Of a stretch of DNA of 34,083 nt, positions 12,117 to 31,924 are shown one piece after another; positions within the stretch are counted from its first letter, which is position 1; every line of letters begins with the position of its first letter. Position numbers and translations under genes: made by a program. The DNA is from a virus. The notes under the pieces are model-generated. The model made no database searches. It was not told the origin of the DNA and saw only the letters and a list, made by a program, of their open reading frames with translations. Where the stretch lies: IMG/VR virus record IMGVR_UViG_3300020438_000133, positions 1 through 34,083 of that record; one strand, given 5' to 3'.

Positions 12117-12687
12117 TCAGATCTCCTAGCTGTCCAGCTCTCATTCATTGTTGAGCGCCGTCCCATCGAAGTGGGACAGCAGCAGCGAACAAGAAAGAAG
12201 CGTAGATCGCGATCGCGAGGGCAACCACCCGAGTACATGCCCGAGCTAAACATCGGTGAGGAACCTTAAAGAGGTTCCGCACCAAAACAAACAATCACGC
12301 GCTACGAGAACCGCGATCTACCGTGACACATCGCTACAGATAGCCCTTTTCAAAATAGTACGCACTGTAAATGTATATCTACACCTACACCTACGAGTTG
12401 GCCCCCACCCCCCTTAGGGGGGGGCGTGTCCGCCGAGAAGCTAGCGTGACGCTAGTGACACGACTGGTCTGTAGATCTCTCGCAGGTCGTGAGCGCTGCG
12501 CTAAAACCCTTATGAAACAAGGGGTATCGGCCTACTAGCTGCGCTTGTAAGGCGTTAGCGCTGCGCTTGTCAGGTCTGGAGCGTTGCCGATAGTGGGAAG
12601 GTGGCAGGGATAAGCGCGGAAAGTGAGCGGGTAACGGTGAGCGGTAGCGAACTATTCAAAGAATTGTGAGACGTGTAGCGCTATGTC

Positions 12688-12728: not shown

Positions 12729-12747
12729 ATCAATAGCCGTAGGAGGC
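12729..12747 (+). repeat. Leader repeat copy 1 (AGCCGTAGGAGGC)
   Basis: The 19-base sequence ATCAATAGCCGTAGGAGGC holds the ribosome site of the gene starting six bases later. The same 19 bases lead the gene at 14358, and the 13-base core AGCCGTAGGAGGC also leads the gene at 13412. Identity extends upstream of the Shine-Dalgarno core, so it is more than a shared ribosome site. Confidence 0.8.
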
Positions 12748-12752
12748 TTAAT

Positions 12753-12980
12753 ATGTGGATGGATAATACCGAAGAGGGAAGAGAAGAACTAGCGCTAGAT
12801 ATGTGCGATTGGTTCCTAGGCAAGATGTACCAAACGTTTAGGGAGCTAGAGATATCTAGTACTCACCAGAAAGAAATGATTCGTTTAGTAGAGAAGCGAC
12901 TAGATACCGAAGTGTTTCTAATTGCTGCGCATGAAAAAGGTTTAAGTGTTGAGGCAGTAAAGGCCGCGGTGGGATCATGA
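12753..12980 (+). CDS. Hypothetical acidic helical protein
   Basis: 75 residues, predicted almost entirely alpha-helical and acidic (MWMDNTEEGREELALDMCDW at the start, HQKEMIRLVEKRLDTEVFLIA in the middle, LSVEAVKAAVG at the end). No known family is recognised. The ribosome site is the repeated AGCCGTAGGAGGC leader. It is the first of three overlapping small genes: the next begins at an ATGA overlap. Small, acidic, plus-strand genes near regulatory DNA in a phage are often early host-takeover factors, but nothing in the sequence proves this. Confidence 0.7.
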   Translation: MWMDNTEEGREELALDMCDWFLGKMYQTFRELEISSTHQKEMIRLVEKRLDTEVFLIAAHEKGLSVEAVKAAVGS

Positions 12981-13210
12981 AGCGCCATATATCTAGTGAT
13001 CACGATTTCTTGGCCGTGCCTTGTGACCAGTGCGCGGAGGTCTCACCTACTAATTGGGCGGGTTTCTGTCATCACTGCTACCACTTCGCAGGTTCTCCCT
13101 TTTGGACGCTTTCTAGCGCTGCGCAGCGTGGAGTCATTAAGCGAGTAAATCAGATTGAAGCGGAGCGGCTGCGCTCTCGTGTCGTTGCTATTGCTGGAGG
13201 TTCGAACTAA
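12977..13210 (+). CDS. Small zinc-ribbon-like protein
   Basis: 77 residues. The N-terminal half has two Cys pairs, C17DQC20 and C31HHC34, with further His residues around them (HHCYHF). This is a credible four-Cys zinc knuckle. The C-terminal half is a basic amphipathic helix (AAQRGVIKRVNQIEAERLRSRVVAIA). The layout would suit nucleic acid or RNA polymerase binding, which is inference only. It starts at an ATGA overlap with the gene before it and its stop overlaps the next start (TAATG), so all three small genes are translationally linked. Confidence 0.68.
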   Translation: MKRHISSDHDFLAVPCDQCAEVSPTNWAGFCHHCYHFAGSPFWTLSSAAQRGVIKRVNQIEAERLRSRVVAIAGGSN

Positions 13211-13317
13211 TGGCTAAGGCTAAGTGTGATGAGTGTTCCCGCGAGTTCGATTTGTTTGATGAAGAGGAGGCAGAAGAATTTTATTATGGGCACGACTGCG
13301 AACCAGAAGAGAGCTAG
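13210..13317 (+). CDS. Very small zinc-finger-like acidic protein (35 aa)
   Basis: The product begins MAKAKCDECSREF, is rich in Asp/Glu in the middle, and ends GHDCEPEES. C6, C9, H28 and C30 form a CxxC...HxC site able to hold zinc. Its ATG overlaps the upstream stop by one base (TAATG), with GGAGG about nine bases upstream. It is the last gene of the three-gene cluster and runs up to the tRNA-like sequence. No family is recognised. Confidence 0.6.
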   Translation: MAKAKCDECSREFDLFDEEEAEEFYYGHDCEPEES

Positions 13318-13377
13318 CTAGTTAGACGGTAGACGCGGTTTAAGGCCGCTCTAGGGGTTCAAGTCCTCTACTACTTC
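13303..13377 (+). tRNA. Degenerate tRNA-like sequence, resembles tRNA-Leu(UAA)
   Basis: A T-arm is clear: AGGGG-TTCAAGT-CCTCT at 13353-13369. Upstream, GCGG-TTTAAGG-CCGC (13335-13349) can form an anticodon arm with anticodon TAA. GGTAGACGC before it is the usual D-loop end of leucine tRNAs. The following ACTACTT would be the 3' acceptor strand. The 5' acceptor strand pairs poorly, the long leucine variable arm is missing, and no CCA is encoded. I read it as a decayed or atypical phage tRNA. It overlaps the end of the preceding gene. Confidence 0.35.
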
Positions 13378-13386
13378 GACACATTA

Positions 13387-13404
13387 ATTAAAGCCGTAGG
13401 AGGC
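13387..13404 (+). repeat. Leader repeat copy 2 (AGCCGTAGGAGGC)
   Basis: The 13-base core is identical to copies 1 and 3 and is preceded by the related ATTAA. AGGAGG lies eight bases before the ATG of the next gene. Confidence 0.8.
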
Positions 13405-13411
13405 GTAAGAA

Positions 13412-13888
13412 ATGGAAACAGAAACAACTAAAAGCGATAGCGAGAAAGTCGCTGAGAGCTATATAAAAGAGATTCAGCAGCTAGATCTAATAATGGATGG
13501 TATCGAATATTTCGGTATCGATGATGCGAACGTAGACGCATGGCTAACCGAAATCGGCGCTGATGATTTAGCGGAGCGCCTAGGAATAGCGGAGGATGAA
13601 GTAGGCCCTCACCACATCTTGGATTTATGGATTGAAAATCAGGTTTTAGAAATGAAATGGTTTACTAAGAATAGTTTCGACTCTGATCCAATGATTACTA
13701 GCGTTGAGTTATTGGTAGGTTTCGGCGGTCCTAATGTTTGGATCATTTTGGATGTTGTCACCGATTCGGCTTGGAATTGTGAAGTCAAGGTTAAGTGGTG
13801 GGGAGATGACGTTACGAGACTTATCAAATCTGATGTCTTGCACCGACACGTAAAAGATTTAGTGGAGAGCGGTATCTATTGCGCTTAA
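13412..13888 (+). CDS. Hypothetical phage protein (GGPNVW)
   Basis: 158 residues, acidic. A helical N-terminal half (ESYIKEIQQLDLIMDGIEYFGIDD...LTEIGADDLAERLGI) is followed by a beta-rich C-terminal half with MITSVELLVGFGGPNVWIIL and CEVKVKWWGDDV. The 'ITSVELLVGFGGPN.W' segment resembles a conserved stretch in uncharacterised phage and plasmid proteins. I cannot assign a named family. It has its own leader repeat and is followed at once by a strong terminator, so it is a single-gene unit or the end of the first cluster. Codon use is AT-leaning, like its plus-strand neighbours. Confidence 0.72.
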   Translation: METETTKSDSEKVAESYIKEIQQLDLIMDGIEYFGIDDANVDAWLTEIGADDLAERLGIAEDEVGPHHILDLWIENQVLEMKWFTKNSFDSDPMITSVELLVGFGGPNVWIILDVVTDSAWNCEVKVKWWGDDVTRLIKSDVLHRHVKDLVESGIYCA

Positions 13889-13912
13889 TCGTTAGCTAAT
13901 AATTATTTGAGA

Positions 13913-13945
13913 TGGCGCCCGCTTTGGGCGTCATTTCTGCTTTTT
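13913..13945 (+). terminator. Intrinsic terminator
   Basis: TGGCGCCC pairs with GGGCGTCA (eight pairs, one G-U) around the loop GCTTT and is followed by TTTCTGCTTTTT. It lies 25 bases after the stop of the preceding gene. Confidence 0.8.
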
Positions 13946-14048
13946 GCTCTAGAGCCGTTGCACAGCATCCTACCGGCTTTTAGGTCTTCCGATTAGCTCC
14001 AATTAGCTGCGCAGCTGCACGCGTCAATTTGACACGGTAGCGATTGTA

Positions 14049-14122
14049 AGCCGATTTAAGGCGTTTATATTAGGTCTAGGCTATGGGTATAGCGTGCGCA
14101 TCTCAGGCCTTAAAAATCGGCT
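14049..14122. repeat. Imperfect inverted repeat, 14/16-base arms
   Basis: The left arm AGCCGATTTAAGGC is matched by the right arm GCCTTAAAAATCGGCT, whose reverse complement differs only by two extra T. The 44-base loop and the flank also carry ATATTAGG twice. It could fold in RNA or serve as a protein site. Confidence 0.6.
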
Positions 14123-14215
14123 CAAATATTAGGCGCGCCCAAAAAATCAGCAAAAAACTTGGATGCGAGTACGTGACGCCAACACTCACGTAGAGCTGAG
14201 TCGATGTTCGATCAG

Positions 14216-14270
14216 CAACTACGTTGGGAAGGCCCAATATGTTGGGAAGTTTCTGCAACTACGTTGGGAT
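14216..14270. repeat. Three iteron-like repeats (CAACTACGTTGGGA)
   Basis: GCAACTACGTTGGGA occurs at 14215-14229 and again, identical, at 14255-14269. A diverged copy, CAATATGTTGGGAAG, lies between them. The common GTTGGGA cores start at 14223, 14241 and 14263, about two helix turns apart. Such spacing suits a cooperative DNA-binding protein. Confidence 0.6.
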
Positions 14271-14291
14271 TGCCGAAACAAGAAATATCGA

Positions 14292-14326
14292 GATGTCGCA
14301 TGATGTCTCGTTAAATTGTGTATAGT
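14292..14326 (+). promoter_or_regulatory. Candidate promoter with GATGTC direct repeats
   Basis: TATAGT at 14321-14326 is a good -10 box 32 bases before the next start codon. No -35 match exists. Instead GATGTC-GCAT-GATGTC covers the place where it should be. The same half-site appears in the control regions near 15992 and 20520, which suggests a shared regulator. Confidence 0.45.
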
Positions 14327-14332
14327 AAGTTT

Positions 14333-14351
14333 ATCAATAGCCGTAGGAGGC
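14333..14351 (+). repeat. Leader repeat copy 3 (AGCCGTAGGAGGC)
   Basis: ATCAATAGCCGTAGGAGGC is identical over 19 bases to copy 1 and over 13 to copy 2. Seven bases separate AGGAGG plus C from the ATG. Confidence 0.8.
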
Positions 14352-14357
14352 AACTAA

Positions 14358-14804
14358 ATGAGAGAGCAATATGAAGGTTTAAGCGTTCTAGATGAGGATC
14401 CATTTAAGCACTACCTATATGAGATAGTAATGAATGGTGGTTCTGATGAGTTTATGGGCGATTACGATATGGGTACGTTGGAACGAATAGGCAGGCACGT
14501 ACTCGAATGCACGTCATCAGGGTTTATTCACCACTATAAAATGCATGGACATCAGCATCAGTACAACTTCGATCTATGGGTCGAAGAAACGTATGGAGAG
14601 AAACAGGCATTTCGGTTGAGGGAAATGAGTGGTTGTGACTGGCAGGAACAATTTTTCGTCATGAATGATGACGAAAAAGTTGATGCCGCGCTTTTAAGAA
14701 AAAATGAGTCGATGCCTGACGTTCACATGATGGCTCAGTGGACGGCTAAAGCCTGGAATTTTTATTCTGCTGATGATGGATCTCTAGTTATCGAAGGAGT
14801 GTAA
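14358..14804 (+). CDS. Hypothetical acidic protein
   Basis: 148 residues, acidic, rich in aromatic residues and His (FIHHYKMHGHQHQYNFDLWVEETYG, CDWQEQFFVMNDDEK, WTAKAWNFYSADDGSLVIEGV). No motif or family is recognised. The ribosome site is the third leader repeat, and a TATAGT promoter lies just upstream, so this is the first gene of a three-gene unit. The stop overlaps the next start by one base (TAATG). The mix of predicted helices and strands suggests a folded alpha/beta domain. An early regulatory or host-interaction role is inferred from location only. Confidence 0.7.
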   Translation: MREQYEGLSVLDEDPFKHYLYEIVMNGGSDEFMGDYDMGTLERIGRHVLECTSSGFIHHYKMHGHQHQYNFDLWVEETYGEKQAFRLREMSGCDWQEQFFVMNDDEKVDAALLRKNESMPDVHMMAQWTAKAWNFYSADDGSLVIEGV

Positions 14805-15121
14805 TGAAAGTTCATAAGGGTGAACAGAAACAAACAGTTATTGCCATGTATAAATCTGGGTACGAGATAGCGAAGATCACTGAGTTCGTGGATGTTGATC
14901 GATCTTCGATTTATCGGTGGTTAGATAATGCTGGAGTGCCGAGAGATCGAAGGAAAGTTGATAAGCGTATGCCGAGTAGAGCACAGATATTGCGTGAGAA
15001 TAAGGCGCTTAAAAAGCAGAACAAGATTCTGTTGGAGCAAGTTGACTTGAAGTTGATTAGCTCTAGAGAGTTGGCACTTGAAGTGTTACAGTCAGTGGAT
15101 CAGGCCAAGGAGGCATCATGA
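14804..15121 (+). CDS. HTH DNA-binding protein with coiled coil
   Basis: 105 residues. Residues 8-43 (QTVIAMYKSGYEIAKITEFVDVDRSSIYRWL) form a resolvase/transposase-type helix-turn-helix. The pattern 'Y..G.....I.......RSS.YRWL' is close to the Hin/IS-type HTH. Residues 58-84 (SRAQILRENKALKKQNKILLEQVD) form a leucine-zipper-like coiled coil, implying a dimer. No catalytic domain follows, so it is more likely a regulator than a recombinase. The gene at 20017 has the same layout. It lies in the middle of a three-gene unit and could act on the iterons just upstream. Confidence 0.72.
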   Translation: MKVHKGEQKQTVIAMYKSGYEIAKITEFVDVDRSSIYRWLDNAGVPRDRRKVDKRMPSRAQILRENKALKKQNKILLEQVDLKLISSRELALEVLQSVDQAKEAS

Positions 15122-15297
15122 GCGTTTATAAGAAATACACTTTGCTCATCCATGAAAATGGTGAAGACATGATGAACGCACCGACAATGCAAAACATTCT
15201 GAATGATTATTTCCAGAACAACGAAGAAGATTGTTATGCGAATACCTGGGTTCTTGAAGCTAAGTCCGAAGAAGTTGATGGGCCATCTCTCGATTGA
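15118..15297 (+). CDS. Small hypothetical protein (59 aa)
   Basis: The frame begins MSVYKKYTLLIHENGED and ends EAKSEEVDGPSLD. It starts at an ATGA overlap with the HTH gene and has AAGGAGG six bases before its ATG, a strong ribosome site. The short, acidic, possibly beta-alpha product has no family I recognise. It is the last gene of the cluster and is followed within ten bases by two stacked terminators. Confidence 0.68.
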   Translation: MSVYKKYTLLIHENGEDMMNAPTMQNILNDYFQNNEEDCYANTWVLEAKSEEVDGPSLD

Positions 15298-15305
15298 CCC
15301 GATAT

Positions 15306-15340
15306 CGTAGGAGACGCAAAATAACCTCCTACGGCTTTTT
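15306..15340 (+). terminator. Terminator 1, with an arm complementary to the leader repeats
   Basis: CGTAGGAG pairs with CTCCTACG around a 12-base loop and is followed by GCTTTTT. The right arm with its flank, CCTCCTACGGCT (15325-15336), is the exact reverse complement of AGCCGTAGGAGG, the core of the three leader repeats. Confidence 0.65.
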
Positions 15341-15348
15341 GCACTGGA

Positions 15349-15383
15349 CCTCATCTCTTCGGAGATGGGGTTCTTTCATTTTT
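15349..15383 (+). terminator. Terminator 2, UUCG tetraloop
   Basis: CCTCATCTC pairs with GAGATGGGG (nine pairs, one G-U) closed by TTCG and followed by TTCTTTCATTTTT. It backs up terminator 1 and separates the small-gene cluster from the next gene. Confidence 0.82.
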
Positions 15384-16032: not shown

Positions 16033-16278
16033 ATGAACTCACTACATGGAACTCAACAACGTTGGGAAGAAGATTGTCGCTGCAACTTGTGCGTGTCAGC
16101 TCACAGATCCTTTATGAACTCGCAACGACGTAAAGGCATCTACCGAGTCAGTCAGCATGCGAGAAATTCATCGGAGTCCACCCAACCCAAAAGAGAACGG
16201 TTCCAAAAAGATTTGGAACTGAGAAACAACCCCGACTGTTTAACTCGCGGGGAAATCATGAGAGCTAGGGGATATTGA
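16033..16278 (+). CDS. Small zinc-binding protein with HGT...CRC..C motif
   Basis: 81 residues from the ATG with AAAGGG five bases upstream; an in-frame TTG seven codons earlier overlaps the promoter and is unlikely. HGTQQRWEEDCRCNLCVSAHRSFMNSQRRK matches the 'HGT...Y..GCRC..C..A......RR' signature of small proteins found very often in actinobacteria and their phages, probably metal- and nucleic-acid-binding. The C-terminus is basic and polar and ends TRGEIMRARGY. It is the first gene of a plus-strand run and overlaps the next start by one base (TGATG). Confidence 0.68.
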   Translation: MNSLHGTQQRWEEDCRCNLCVSAHRSFMNSQRRKGIYRVSQHARNSSESTQPKRERFQKDLELRNNPDCLTRGEIMRARGY

Positions 16279-26915: not shown

Positions 26916-26949
26916 CTCGCAGAAAAGTTCTGCGAGTTTATTCTTTTTT
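26916..26949 (+). terminator. Plus-strand terminator beyond the lysis cassette
   Basis: CTCGCAGAA pairs perfectly with TTCTGCGAG (nine pairs) around AAG and is followed by TTTATTCTTTTTT. The T tail exists only on the plus strand, although both neighbouring genes are on the minus strand. It would stop transcripts coming from the plus-strand early operon, whose last gene ends 1.5 kb upstream with no terminator of its own that I can see. Confidence 0.75.
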
Positions 26950-29900
26950 ACCGCGAAGTATTAGCTAAATCCATACCATCGCGCTGAGTAGCTGCTCGTT
27001 TCCGATCCATATCCAGGCGAGCACTTCTTGCAGTCTGCGGAGTGTTGATCCTCAGCGGAATTCCGAAAAAGAACGATAACGCAGATTGTAAATGGCGTTC
27101 CCCTTCGAACTTATCTTCAGTCGGGAGAAGCCTTCGTGCTCGACCATAGAACGGCATAAATTGCTCCAACATATACACATTCGACTGGCGCATCTTGCCG
27201 TTCTTCATCAAACCCAAAGCTCTAAGCCCATGACTAAGCCCAGGGACCTTATCGACATACAGCGGCGTCTTCCCCCACCGATCACTAATCGGTAAACCCT
27301 TAAAGAACTGTTTGCCAGTCATCAGCTCCAAAGGAGCCTTAACAATCGGCGTAACCTGAGTCATGCCGAACTCGCCAGCGACCTTAAACAAGTTTGACTC
27401 TTCGCTTTGCAATCTAAATAGATCAGTGAACGGCAAATCAGGCGTGAAATAGGTTTGATTGCCGCCCATAGCGAACGGCAAACGAATTCCGAAAGGAGCC
27501 ATATAGTAAGCAGGAACAAAGAATTCGCTATCACTATTCCTCTCAATATTTCGTTTAGCCGAGTACAACGCATTGTACTTACCTGGGTTTCTCCAAAGCT
27601 GAGACGCCTGATACGGCATGTTTTTGCGAGTCCACGTATAGAAAGGAACAATTTGTTTTATAGCTCGTTCATATTTCGTGAGTTCGCCGTAATCGAACTG
27701 GCTATCAGCGATCAGCTCTAATGCATCATCAACAGACCCGCCAGTAGAAAGAGCGTGCAAACCAGTACCGATCCTGATTGCATCTTCCATCCGATTATTA
27801 ACATCTTGGATTGTACTCGAAACAACGTTGTCGGCTTTAAGAGGACTCAGCTCTATCCGCTTAACACGTCCCTTAGTCGCAAAGTTTTTGAGAACAACCG
27901 AAGTTCTCGAAAACGTTCCCATAACATTCGAATCTAAAGCAGATGCACCCTGACCAGATTTGAGCACACCAACATCAATGAGCTGGCGAATAGCTTTCCA
28001 CTCAGCATTACCAGGGTTACGCGCAATCATGATATCTACGCCTTCAGAAACCCGACCTTCTCCAGCTCGTAACGCTTGCCCCAAAAGACGATGCGTTCTC
28101 ATAACCATCGTAGGAGGCACACCCTCAACGAACATCGACATCATCGCGCCTTGAACGTTTCGGCTAACCCAACCAAGAGAAGTTAACTGAGCACTCTTAA
28201 TGTAATTATAAACTTTGTTATATTGCTTTCCGAAAGCCCCTAATCGGATCGTGTCGCCAGCTCGCTGATAACCATCAAGCAAAGAAACAATGTCGGTTCT
28301 CGACATCTGATTAGAATCAGCAAGAATCGTCCAGGGACCCCAATGCCCCATGTCCTCCTGCATAATGTTTTGCAAATCTTTCAAAGGCTGCCCACTAGTC
28401 GGCAAAGGGCTAGCCATGCTCTGATTTTTGTACCGTTTCAACAACTCATCAAGTTGAGCCATCGCATCATTAAGACCGTCAGCGACACCCAAACCGGCGT
28501 CGTCTCGCAAACCACCTGCTCTACCCAACCTGGAATTAAGAGTTCTTATTATCTGATCAAACTCTTTAAGGATGGGCTGCAACGTCTCTAAATCAGCAGC
28601 CTGAGCAGCAGCCTCAGCGGCAGCCACCCGCCCCATCTGCTCTTCCCTTTGAGCACCTTTAACGTCACCTTTGCGAAGCGCCTCATCTTTTTGGGCTATC
28701 CGAACTTGCAACGCTTCCGAAAGCTCAACGACTCGATCATTCGCTTTGGCATAATGCTCAACAGCAATGTTTCGCTGATTCAACAAATAACTGTTTACCC
28801 TCGCCAAACCTTCTTCTTCTGAAATTAAAACTTCAGGCCCAACAAAATCATCTAAAAAGTTTTGATTAAGAGTACCATCAGCCGCTGGCACAGTCCGAGC
28901 CGCGCTACCTAACCCAGGGAGACCCTCTAAAGGCAAAGGATCCCCAACCCGAACGGCCTGATACAGCTCGTCAATATAATTATTTTGACGAGCGATACTT
29001 TCCAAAATTTGTGCTCGCCGAGTTTCTAAAGGAACAGTCCGAGTTGCCGAGGAAAGCCGATACTCATGACCCCCAACCGCTTGATCAGCATCAATAAACT
29101 TTCTGATTTCTTTATTAAACCATTCGATACGTTTCGACGCAGAACGATAAGTATTTTGAACACTGGCCCTGCCCTTCACGGTCTGCAAAGCACCATGAGA
29201 AGCCATCTTCAAATCCTCAAGCAAAATTGACTCAGGCGACTTGTTGCCATAAGCAACCGCCTGCTTCTCAATGGATTCAATAGCGTCAGCTAAGAAAGCC
29301 ATCTGATCTTCCATCTCTTCGCGCAACGCAGTGTACATCGCCGTATCAAGAGGCTCATCAGTCCAATATTTCTCAGCGTACTTCCGACCCTCAATAGGCT
29401 GATTCTCAGGAAGTCGAACCGCTTCCAAATCGCGCATCTTCCGAACAATGTTCACATAGGCATCAATTTGAGCGCTCGCCTGATCAAGCTGATGTAACCG
29501 AGCCGCAAGATCCGAATACTCCTGAACAAGCTCAACGTACTCGCGTCCAGCCATCGACCCATTATCAGTTCGAGTACGAGCCAGCTCATCCATCCGAGCT
29601 TGAACAACCTCAACGCGAGCTGTAATCACCTCGACTTCAGCAAACGCATCGTTCTGCTTAATGAATGCCTCTTCAAGCTGCAACGCATTATCTAAAATTT
29701 CTTCGCCTCCGACATTATCGGGGCGAACATTACCCATAGTCCGACCATTAGCGGCCTTACGATAATGACCCATCCGAACGCGAGCTGCCTCCGCAGCTTT
29801 CTTCTGCGCTTGCTTAGCTCTCGCTTTAGCCTTAGCTAAACTCCCAGCAGCCTCCTCACCTTTTTTATAAAGCTTCGCAGCCTCATCAATCAAAGGAGCC

Positions 29901-31924
29901 ATGTCATCAACAAGAATTCCGAATGATTCAAAAATCTCTTCAATCAGACGCATCCTAAAATCGGAACCGACAACGTTGCCATATGCAGCCCAAACACCCG
30001 CATAATCAGTGTCATAAATTTTTGGGAGCCCCATAGCTTCAGCAGCTTCATTAACTTGCCGAGCTACACTCTTACCGGCAACGCGAGGATCAATCACTTC
30101 ATCCAAAATTTGGATCTTCTCAACTTTTTTGCCTGTCGCTGACCATCGCAAAGATTTCGGGTTTGTCCCTGGAGGAGCCACCCAACCTTCAGGCACCTTG
30201 ACTTCGACAACTCCGCCAGGAACAATCTTTCGATCTTTCAAATTCGCAGCGTTTCGTCTCTGAGCAAGATTGCTCTGAGACGCAGCCCCTAAATCTTTCC
30301 AAGATTCAACTGGAACCTCATCAGCTCCATCAACCATCATCGCCCGACCCTCAGGCGTCAAATGTCTCGGGACATAGCCGCCTTCAGTGGCAGCAACCGT
30401 CTTTACCGCCACCTCAAAATCGCCGCCACGATGACCCATCTGCGCAGCCAAACTCTCACGACTAGTCCGAACCGCTGCTTGATGAATAATCTCTAACTGC
30501 TCCAAAGGCACACCATAGAAAGACTCTGGCAAAACCCCAGGCCGAAGAGCACCTTCAAACAAAAGATCATCAAACGAATCAAACGAACCCAACTCATACA
30601 GATCATCAGGAGTAAGATTATTTCTCCGACCCAAATTAACTGCATCAATAACATTCGTCTCAATGTCCGCATTAAATTTGCGGCCACGCCAATTAGCGCC
30701 ACGAGTCCTACGATGAATATCTTTCGCAACGATACGAACCGCTGGATCAGGATGATTCAAAAACCCATCAGCGAACTTCGCCGAATTGAAAATAATACCA
30801 GGGCCAACATCCCGCAAAATTTGGCCGCCGCGAGTTCCCATCACCGCGTTCCAACCTCGTATAGGCGAATCCATTATCTGAAGCGAAGCGCCAATCGATC
30901 TAAGCCCCTTCGGTAACATCAGCTCAACAGGCTGCTTCCCCGCAGCTTTACCCAAAAGGTCAACTGGGTTAGAAGGAAACTTGTTACCTCTATTCGCAAT
31001 AATGGCAGCCGAAAGTTTCCCAATATCTTCAGCAGAATCTGATAAACCAGCCTGCGCCTTATAATAAACCGGCACTTGCTTAGCTCGACGAGTCGCAACA
31101 ATATTCCTAATCCCAGGGATCTGATCAGCTCTAGAGAAACGACCAAACACGCCAGTGCCAGGCAACCTCGCCCGAAGGCCAGGATTCAAACCCATCTCTT
31201 CAATTAATTGTTTCCCTGCCGTTCCCTGGGTGCGCAGAAAGCGCACCCCAGCAGACAAACTCTTACCATCACTCATCGCAATAGCAGCATCTTTAGCTAA
31301 CTTAGCTCGGGCAACATCTCCAGCTTTATCAGCCACTCCCGCAACCTTCAACAAATCCGCAGCGACACTCGTAGCGCCCTTCAAAGAAGCAAGCTTGCCA
31401 ATACCACCAAGAATGTTAAGAGGATCAAAAATAACATCAGCAGAAAAATCTGCAATCGTTTCCAAACCCAACATGTCAAACGCCGCAGGAACAGCCGACA
31501 AACCAAACGTGAAAGGTGCCATGTACTTGTAAATGTTTTTATGTTTCGCCCGAACATCACCCCAGTTGATGGGATCCGAGTACGCCTGTCGCCACCAATC
31601 AGAAAAAGAAGCATCCTGACCCGAAACAAGATCCGCAATTTCCATGCCAGTAGACGCAGCAAAACCCAAAGGAATCGACAAAGCTTGAAACATCTTCGCA
31701 GCGAAACCTTTGGACTCTGGCTCGTTACTTTGCCAACCCCCTTCAGGGACTTTAATAGCTGGCGTTTGAGGAATGCTTTCGCTCAACTTCGCCATCCGCT
31801 CACTAAAATCAGCAGACCGATCAGGACTCTTCAAAGAGTTCAATAAATCGTCTTTAGTTGAAGGTTTGGAAGGAGCTTTCCCAGTTATAGAGCTAAGAAG
31901 ATCCGCCCTAGTTGTTGGCGTCAT
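26948..31924 (-). CDS. Giant internal virion/DNA-ejection protein (1658 aa)
   Basis: The largest gene of the window. Its N-terminus repeats 'T..DLL.S..' (TRADLLSSITGKAPSKPSTKDDLLNSLKSP). Hydrophobic, Gly/Ala-rich segments follow at about 75-100 and 133-180 (YMAPFTFGLSAVPAAFDMLGLETIADF, DPLNILGGIGKLA), able to insert in membranes. The middle, about 690-1200, is long Ala/Glu/Arg-rich coiled coil. The C-terminal part has IVPFYTWTRKNMPYQASQLWRNPGKY, a signature I associate with large phage virion or polyvalent proteins. This fits proteins packed in the head core and ejected first to build a channel across the envelope, as in T7 gp15/gp16. No enzyme motif is seen. GGAGGAGGGG precedes the ATG. Confidence 0.75.
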   Translation of the reverse strand: MTPTTRADLLSSITGKAPSKPSTKDDLLNSLKSPDRSADFSERMAKLSESIPQTPAIKVPEGGWQSNEPESKGFAAKMFQALSIPLGFAASTGMEIADLVSGQDASFSDWWRQAYSDPINWGDVRAKHKNIYKYMAPFTFGLSAVPAAFDMLGLETIADFSADVIFDPLNILGGIGKLASLKGATSVAADLLKVAGVADKAGDVARAKLAKDAAIAMSDGKSLSAGVRFLRTQGTAGKQLIEEMGLNPGLRARLPGTGVFGRFSRADQIPGIRNIVATRRAKQVPVYYKAQAGLSDSAEDIGKLSAAIIANRGNKFPSNPVDLLGKAAGKQPVELMLPKGLRSIGASLQIMDSPIRGWNAVMGTRGGQILRDVGPGIIFNSAKFADGFLNHPDPAVRIVAKDIHRRTRGANWRGRKFNADIETNVIDAVNLGRRNNLTPDDLYELGSFDSFDDLLFEGALRPGVLPESFYGVPLEQLEIIHQAAVRTSRESLAAQMGHRGGDFEVAVKTVAATEGGYVPRHLTPEGRAMMVDGADEVPVESWKDLGAASQSNLAQRRNAANLKDRKIVPGGVVEVKVPEGWVAPPGTNPKSLRWSATGKKVEKIQILDEVIDPRVAGKSVARQVNEAAEAMGLPKIYDTDYAGVWAAYGNVVGSDFRMRLIEEIFESFGILVDDMAPLIDEAAKLYKKGEEAAGSLAKAKARAKQAQKKAAEAARVRMGHYRKAANGRTMGNVRPDNVGGEEILDNALQLEEAFIKQNDAFAEVEVITARVEVVQARMDELARTRTDNGSMAGREYVELVQEYSDLAARLHQLDQASAQIDAYVNIVRKMRDLEAVRLPENQPIEGRKYAEKYWTDEPLDTAMYTALREEMEDQMAFLADAIESIEKQAVAYGNKSPESILLEDLKMASHGALQTVKGRASVQNTYRSASKRIEWFNKEIRKFIDADQAVGGHEYRLSSATRTVPLETRRAQILESIARQNNYIDELYQAVRVGDPLPLEGLPGLGSAARTVPAADGTLNQNFLDDFVGPEVLISEEEGLARVNSYLLNQRNIAVEHYAKANDRVVELSEALQVRIAQKDEALRKGDVKGAQREEQMGRVAAAEAAAQAADLETLQPILKEFDQIIRTLNSRLGRAGGLRDDAGLGVADGLNDAMAQLDELLKRYKNQSMASPLPTSGQPLKDLQNIMQEDMGHWGPWTILADSNQMSRTDIVSLLDGYQRAGDTIRLGAFGKQYNKVYNYIKSAQLTSLGWVSRNVQGAMMSMFVEGVPPTMVMRTHRLLGQALRAGEGRVSEGVDIMIARNPGNAEWKAIRQLIDVGVLKSGQGASALDSNVMGTFSRTSVVLKNFATKGRVKRIELSPLKADNVVSSTIQDVNNRMEDAIRIGTGLHALSTGGSVDDALELIADSQFDYGELTKYERAIKQIVPFYTWTRKNMPYQASQLWRNPGKYNALYSAKRNIERNSDSEFFVPAYYMAPFGIRLPFAMGGNQTYFTPDLPFTDLFRLQSEESNLFKVAGEFGMTQVTPIVKAPLELMTGKQFFKGLPISDRWGKTPLYVDKVPGLSHGLRALGLMKNGKMRQSNVYMLEQFMPFYGRARRLLPTEDKFEGERHLQSALSFFFGIPLRINTPQTARSARLDMDRKRAATQRDGMDLANTSR

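What the first reader, a model, noticed from the sequence alone, without database searches (positions are those of the whole stretch)
12729..15340. Repeated 13-base leader on three transcripts and an exactly complementary terminator arm
AGCCGTAGGAGGC, covering the ribosome site, precedes the genes at 12753, 13412 and 14358 (19 identical bases for the first and third). The 3' arm of the terminator ending this gene region, CCTCCTACGGCT (15325-15336), is the perfect 12-base complement of AGCCGTAGGAGG. The released 3' end of that RNA could pair with the leaders and block translation in trans. It goes beyond the general anti-Shine-Dalgarno match, because ACGGCT is included. This would be a self-contained feedback RNA circuit.
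Basis: partly seen in the sequence, partly recalled or inferred. Interest (0 to 1): 0.62.

Follow-up and report, generated by a model that had tools for sequence, protein, structure and literature searches.

The report
Phage start-site repeats and antisense hairpin
A marine temperate phage marks the starts of three small early genes with the same 13-base ribosome-binding sequence and also carries a hairpin that could pair with it; the start-site repeat resembles an unexplained one known from mycobacterial phages, but use of the hairpin to switch those genes off is unproven.

Summary
In detail: AGCCGTAGGAGGC occurs three times, 5-7 bases before ATG, and its reverse complement lies at 15325-15336 (14 bp perfect with the middle leader). 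Neither is chance. The leaders behave like the Start-Associated Sequences (SAS) of Cluster K mycobacteriophages and Cluster EF Microbacterium phages: repeated ribosome-binding sites, conserved beyond the SD core, with inverted ends that can close a mini-hairpin around it. Sequence and copy number differ, so this is SAS-like, not a member.

The hairpin holding the complementary arm is conserved in two relatives (L016, L018), but it is probably not the main terminator: a UUCG-loop hairpin (15346-15373) follows it in all three. In L016 the leader differs and its complement to the arm shrinks to 7 bp plus a bulged 5 bp (shuffle p about 0.09), so the covariation test is inconclusive. Pairing is thermodynamically allowed but must open a -12 kcal/mol hairpin.

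An independent parallel turned up. Cluster K1 phages keep an anti-SAS sequence in the loop of a conserved hairpin, in the gap where published RNA-seq places the start of late transcription in Adephagia. TM4, Pixie and the EF phage have SAS without it. A leader/anti-leader circuit is a live but unproven hypothesis (about 0.25).

The parts
12729..12747 (+). leader 1: ATCAATAGCCGTAGGAGGC, ending 5 nt before ATG 12753; can close AGCC-GUAGGA-GGCU
12753..12980 (+). ORF, 75 aa, no family match (PHROGs, Pfam, NCBIfam)
13390..13404 (+). leader 2: AAAGCCGTAGGAGGC, ending 7 nt before ATG 13412; 14 bp perfect complement to the arm at 15325-15338
13412..13888 (+). ORF, 158 aa, no family match
13909..13937 (+). 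terminator-like hairpin with U-rich tail after the 13412 gene
14333..14351 (+). leader 3: ATCAATAGCCGTAGGAGGC, ending 6 nt before ATG 14358
14358..15297 (+). operon of three ORFs: 14358 (148 aa, no match), 14804 (105 aa, resolvase/transposase-type HTH), 15118 (59 aa; by eye resembles the product of L016:535-714)
15305..15334 (+). hairpin 1: (U)CGUAGGAG - 12 nt loop - CUCCUACG(G), -12.2 kcal/mol; conserved in L016 and L018
15325..15338 (+). anti-leader arm CCTCCTACGGCTTT
15346..15373 (+). hairpin 2: 12 bp, UUCG loop, T-rich tail; the likely main intrinsic terminator, present with a different stem sequence in L016 and L018
15406..15678 (+). downstream anchor gene (DUF7427, PF24202) used to locate the homologous hairpin in relatives

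Best explanation
The 13-base leader is a shared, extended translation-start signal on the first genes of three early operons. Its SD (AGGAGG) can pair with 16S rRNA, and its ends (GCC...GGC) can close a 3-4 bp mini-hairpin with GUAGGA in the loop, the same design as the Start-Associated Sequences of actinobacteriophages (shown: sequence, place, repetition and predicted fold; inferred: that it tunes or coordinates translation). Hairpin 1 is a conserved 3'-UTR stem-loop in front of the likely true UUCG terminator; its main role is probably at the 3' end (backing up termination or protecting the end; inferred). Its arm is complementary to the leaders largely because its 5' arm is itself a leader-like sequence (TCGTAGGAG), so much of the complementarity may be a by-product. 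Pairing with the leaders is possible but not needed to explain the anatomy.
For: Leader position, spacing and repetition. A generic search for repeated AGGA-containing 12-mers before start codons recovers exactly the known SAS in Cluster K and EF controls, and in the window returns only this leader. SAS description and unknown function: PMC3203893, PMC7302621. The mini-hairpin fold occurs in all three leader families and, very weakly, in L016. L016 also has a leader-type sequence before the first gene of its corresponding operon. Hairpin 1 and hairpin 2 are both kept in L016 and L018, while the U-run after hairpin 1 is absent there (GATTTGC), so the strong terminator is hairpin 2. The 5' arm of hairpin 1 shares CGTAGGAG with the leaders.
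Against: Complementarity extends 4-6 bases past what hairpin formation needs, more than shuffled flanks give (p 0.005-0.010), which a pure by-product does not predict. Only three copies, far fewer than in SAS phages. The distant relative MW202803 has no such repeat. No expression data.
Confidence: 0.55

Rival explanations
1. Antisense feedback. The 3' end of the leader-3 operon mRNA, or a processed piece of it, carries the arm CCUCCUACGGCUUU. Its unpaired tail GGCUUU acts as a toehold on AAAGCC or AUAGCC of the leaders, strand exchange opens hairpin 1, and the duplex hides the SD of up to three early genes.
For: 12-14 bp perfect complement; duplex -25 to -27 kcal/mol against -12.2 for the hairpin; net gain -7 to -11 kcal/mol, better than 93-99.8% of random 41-mers; flank shuffles p 0.005-0.010. 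In L016 the own leader pairs better with the own arm (-18.4) than the window leaders do (-12.4 to -13.3). Independent anti-SAS loop conserved in Cluster K phages.
Against: L016 complement not clearly better than shuffles (p 0.08-0.10), with a single leader in a single relative; the window arm pairs with the L016 leader just as well (-25.2), so the pairing is not lineage-specific. The arm is sequestered. The downstream terminator makes a 3' end at 15340 doubtful. One control start site (33790) scores as well in cofold.
Confidence: 0.25
2. Leader and hairpin are two kinds of binding site for one RNA-binding protein: the leader mini-hairpin (SD in a hexaloop) is the regulated site and hairpin 1 an anchor or decoy.
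For: Mini-hairpins in three unrelated leader families and, weakly, in L016 (AAUC-GUAGGA-GGUU); hairpin 1 conserved in L016 and L018, including loop GCAAAA and upstream CGATA, which complementarity to leaders does not explain.
Against: No candidate protein identified; a shifted loop and an unknown host make a CsrA-type site only a guess; the L016 mini-hairpin is very weak (-0.2 kcal/mol).
Confidence: 0.13
3. Nothing regulatory: a strong repeated RBS and a leader-derived inverted duplication in a 3' UTR, kept by descent or by chance.
For: Strong RBSs such as TAGGAGG are also found before other genes of this phage and of its relatives; complementarity shrinks in L016.
Against: Leaders are identical beyond the SD; the hairpin is kept across at least two diverged lineages while most operon genes around it differ.
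Confidence: 0.07

Closest known systems
Start-Associated Sequences (SAS) of Cluster K mycobacteriophages (Pope et al. 2011, PMC3203893)
   Same: 13 bp repeat at the RBS, a few bases before ATG; contains AGGAG; conserved beyond the SD; inverted ends (GGG..CCC, as the authors noted); non-structural genes after intergenic gaps; in K1 phages one copy in the opposite orientation with no gene start
   Different: Sequence AGCCGTAGGAGGC instead of GGGATAGGAGCCC; 3 copies instead of 11-19; no ESAS-type 17 bp inverted repeat found; the anti-copy lies in a stem arm at an operon end, not in the loop of a hairpin near the late transcription start
SAS of Cluster EF Microbacterium phages (AnnaSerena; PMC7302621)
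   Same: 13 bp repeated RBS GGGAAAGGACCCC with 3 bp inverted ends around the SD core
   Different: About ten copies, linked ESAS, and no anti-SAS with up to 2 mismatches in the 49.7 kb examined
3'-UTR-derived or phage-encoded base-pairing sRNAs that block an SD
   Same: A short complementary stretch near a transcript 3' end that could mask start sites in trans
   Different: No sRNA shown; arm paired in a hairpin; a stronger terminator lies downstream; targets are in the same phage

Membership tests
SAS (Cluster K) | 13 bp repeat within about 3-7 bp of the start codon | tested here: met
   13-mer x3, 5, 7 and 6 nt before ATG
SAS (Cluster K) | contains AGGAG and is conserved beyond the SD | tested here: met
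   AGCCGTAGGAGGC identical in all three copies
SAS (Cluster K) | inverted outer bases (GGG..CCC type) | tested here: met
   GCC..GGC; folds as a 3-4 bp mini-hairpin
SAS (Cluster K) | consensus GGGATAGGAGCCC with at most 2 deviations | tested here: not met
   Even in the best register (TAGGAG aligned) GCCGTAGGAGGC departs from the consensus at 4 positions (direct comparison of sequences)
SAS (Cluster K) | 11-19 copies per genome | tested here: not met
   3 copies in the 34 kb record, which may be incomplete
SAS (Cluster K) | ESAS 17 bp inverted repeat upstream of about half of the copies | tested here: not met
   Repeat search shows only the 13-19 nt leader shared between copies
Trans-acting antisense sRNA | stable RNA carrying the complementary stretch | not testable with these tools
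   No RNA data
Trans-acting antisense sRNA | complementarity to targets beyond chance | tested here: met
Trans-acting antisense sRNA | covariation of arm and leaders in relatives | tested here: inconclusive
   Single relative with a leader (L016), p about 0.09
Intrinsic terminator (hairpin 1) | GC-rich stem directly followed by a U-run | tested here: inconclusive
   Window: 8-9 bp stem then CTTTTT; relatives: GATTTGC, no U-run
Any Rfam family | match to a covariance model | tested here: not met
   Only an sR17 hit at E 1.1, below the gathering score, elsewhere in the region

The most novel reading that the evidence does not exclude
Phages with start-associated leaders carry a matching anti-leader RNA that shuts off the leader-tagged early genes: in this marine phage in a hairpin at the end of one tagged operon, and in Cluster K mycobacteriophages in the loop of a conserved hairpin in the gap where late transcription starts. 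This would be a recurring translational off-switch and would give SAS a function.
Probability: 0.2. Interest if true: 0.78.

Novelty: new variant of a known kind. Interest (0 to 1): 0.47.

Why it matters
SAS have been called function-unknown since 2011. Finding an unrelated SAS-like system with the same mini-hairpin design, plus conserved sequences complementary to the leaders in two unrelated phage groups, turns that open question into a concrete test that can be run in M. smegmatis with existing phages.

Tried and rejected
Relatives of the leader-gene proteins 14358 and 13412 in viral contigs: none. Leader 16-mer scan: nine scattered hits; one (L005) clearly precedes an ATG, and none of the nine has a second close copy at another gene start, so taken as chance. 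Hairpin pattern scans: only L016 and L018 are true homologues, the rest coding or unrelated. Prophage relatives in genome contigs by helicase or DUF7427: none. Loop-tail pseudoknot (GCAAAA with TTTTGC): conserved complement, but the 2-3 nt linker seems too short to span a 7-8 bp stem, so not adopted (reasoned, not modelled). tRNA near 13310-13380: not found. DarthP as a covariation test for Cluster K: its SAS is unchanged while its loop differs, so it does not support co-evolution.

Full report
What the window is. It is a 34 kb viral record of a temperate phage: portal, terminase, integrase, repressor-like, helicase and primase genes. Late genes run on the minus strand (from 12116 leftwards, and 33790 to 26948); early genes run on the plus strand from 12753. 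The nearest named record is an uncultured podovirus, MW202803 (portal 44% identical; helicase 28%). Only five related viral contigs were found (L014-L018), and no prophage. The host is unknown. My recollection that DUF7427 is common in actinobacteriophages points to Actinomycetota, but this was not tested; 'marine' rests on my reading of the relatives' sample numbers and was not tested either.

AGCCGTAGGAGGC stands at 12735, 13392 and 14339, each 5-7 bases before an ATG, and its 12-base reverse complement at 15325-15336. With leader 2 the complement is 14 bases without mismatch. Chance is excluded for both.

What the leader is. It sits where a ribosome-binding site sits and contains AGGAGG, but the identity runs past the SD on both sides. 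This is the description of the Start-Associated Sequences of Cluster K mycobacteriophages (GGGATAGGAGCCC) and Cluster EF Microbacterium phages (GGGAAAGGACCCC), whose function is unknown. A generic script that looks for AGGA-containing 12-mers repeated before start codons finds those two known families in control genomes and, in the window, only this leader. All three families have inverted ends and can fold as a 3-4 bp mini-hairpin with the SD core in a 6-7 base loop; Pope et al. had noted the symmetry for Cluster K. The related contig L016 has AATCGTAGGAGGTT before the first gene of its corresponding operon, which can still close AAUC-GUAGGA-GGUU, though very weakly (-0.2 kcal/mol). Copy number, consensus and the missing ESAS keep it out of the SAS family proper.

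What the hairpin is. Hairpin 1 (15305-15334) is followed by a stronger hairpin with a UUCG loop and T-rich tail (15346-15373). In L016 and L018 both hairpins stand at the same place, just upstream of the DUF7427 gene, although most operon genes before them differ. The stem of hairpin 2 changed in sequence but not in shape. The outer pair of hairpin 1 is C-G in the window and U-A in the relatives. The U-run that makes hairpin 1 look like a terminator in the window is missing in the relatives. So hairpin 1 is a conserved element of its own, and the released 3' end is more likely behind hairpin 2, near 15380.

Could arm and leader pair? Duplexes are worth -25 to -27 kcal/mol, the hairpin -12.2. 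Counting the folds given up, the gain is 7-11 kcal/mol, better than 93-99.8% of random pieces of the genome, although one of eight control start sites does as well. With the SD core held fixed and the flanks shuffled, the three leaders score at p 0.005-0.010; they are near-copies, so this is one test, not three. The unpaired GGCUUU tail could serve as a toehold on AAAGCC. In L016 the own leader and arm give 7 pairs, a bulge and 5 pairs (-18.4), against -12.4 to -13.3 for window leaders on that arm, but shuffles reach this in 8-10%, and the window arm pairs with the L016 leader as well as with its own.

An independent parallel. Pope et al. [quoted passage not shown] In the genomes I fetched, that anti-SAS (CCTCCTATCCC) is identical in Anaya, Tiri, Angelica, Murucutumbu, LaterM, Ageofdapage, Urkel and Biglebops, and present in Adephagia. 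It lies in the loop of a hairpin whose stem keeps pairing through several one-sided changes and one two-sided change. The expected chance number is 0.0125 per genome. In Adephagia it lies at about 58684, between gp92 and gp93, the gap in which published RNA-seq places the start of late transcription (PMC11373665). An anti-SAS loop in the late leader could shut off SAS-tagged early genes; this is inference, since the exact start was not given. Against generality: DarthP has a changed loop with unchanged SAS, Pixie and TM4 have SAS without an anti-SAS in the regions searched, and AnnaSerena has none.

Verdict. The leaders are a small SAS-like set, new in this phage group. The hairpin is real and conserved, but its role is probably at the 3' end; the antisense circuit is possible (about 0.25) and has a better testing ground in Cluster K phages.

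Noticed in passing
L120:9870-9882 (Anaya record about 59870), L123-L129, L132; L146:2185 (Adephagia about 58684): Conserved anti-SAS sequence in the loop of a conserved hairpin in the intergenic region where Adephagia late transcription is reported to start; candidate regulator of SAS genes in K1 mycobacteriophages.
   Followed up: partly
window 14216-14231, 14256-14271, 16054-16069: Repeats CAACTACGTTGGGA / CAACAACGTTGGGA (short inverted repeat CAAC-N3-GTTG), two of them 90-140 bp upstream of the leader-3 operon and one near 16054; possible operator sites.
   Followed up: partly
window about 12198-12330 and other places; L015:12-45, L016:5211-5242, L017:1-29, L018:4201-4232: Short palindromic repeats (GATCGCGATCGC in the window, L017 and L018; GCGTACGC in L015 and L016); in the relatives they stand directly before a GTAGGAG sequence.
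   Followed up: no
window 26948-31924: A 1658-aa minus-strand ORF in the late region without any PHROGs match.
   Followed up: no
L138:808-858, L140, L143: Unrelated viral contigs with a hairpin GTAGGAGGGGGCTTGCCCCCCTCCTAC followed by a second hairpin (GAGGTCGC..GCGACCTC).
   Followed up: no
window 15316-15321 and 15337-15342: Hairpin-1 loop GCAAAA is complementary to the tail TTTTGC; kept in L016 and L018 (GCAAA/TTTGC), though the linker seems too short for a simple pseudoknot.
   Followed up: partly
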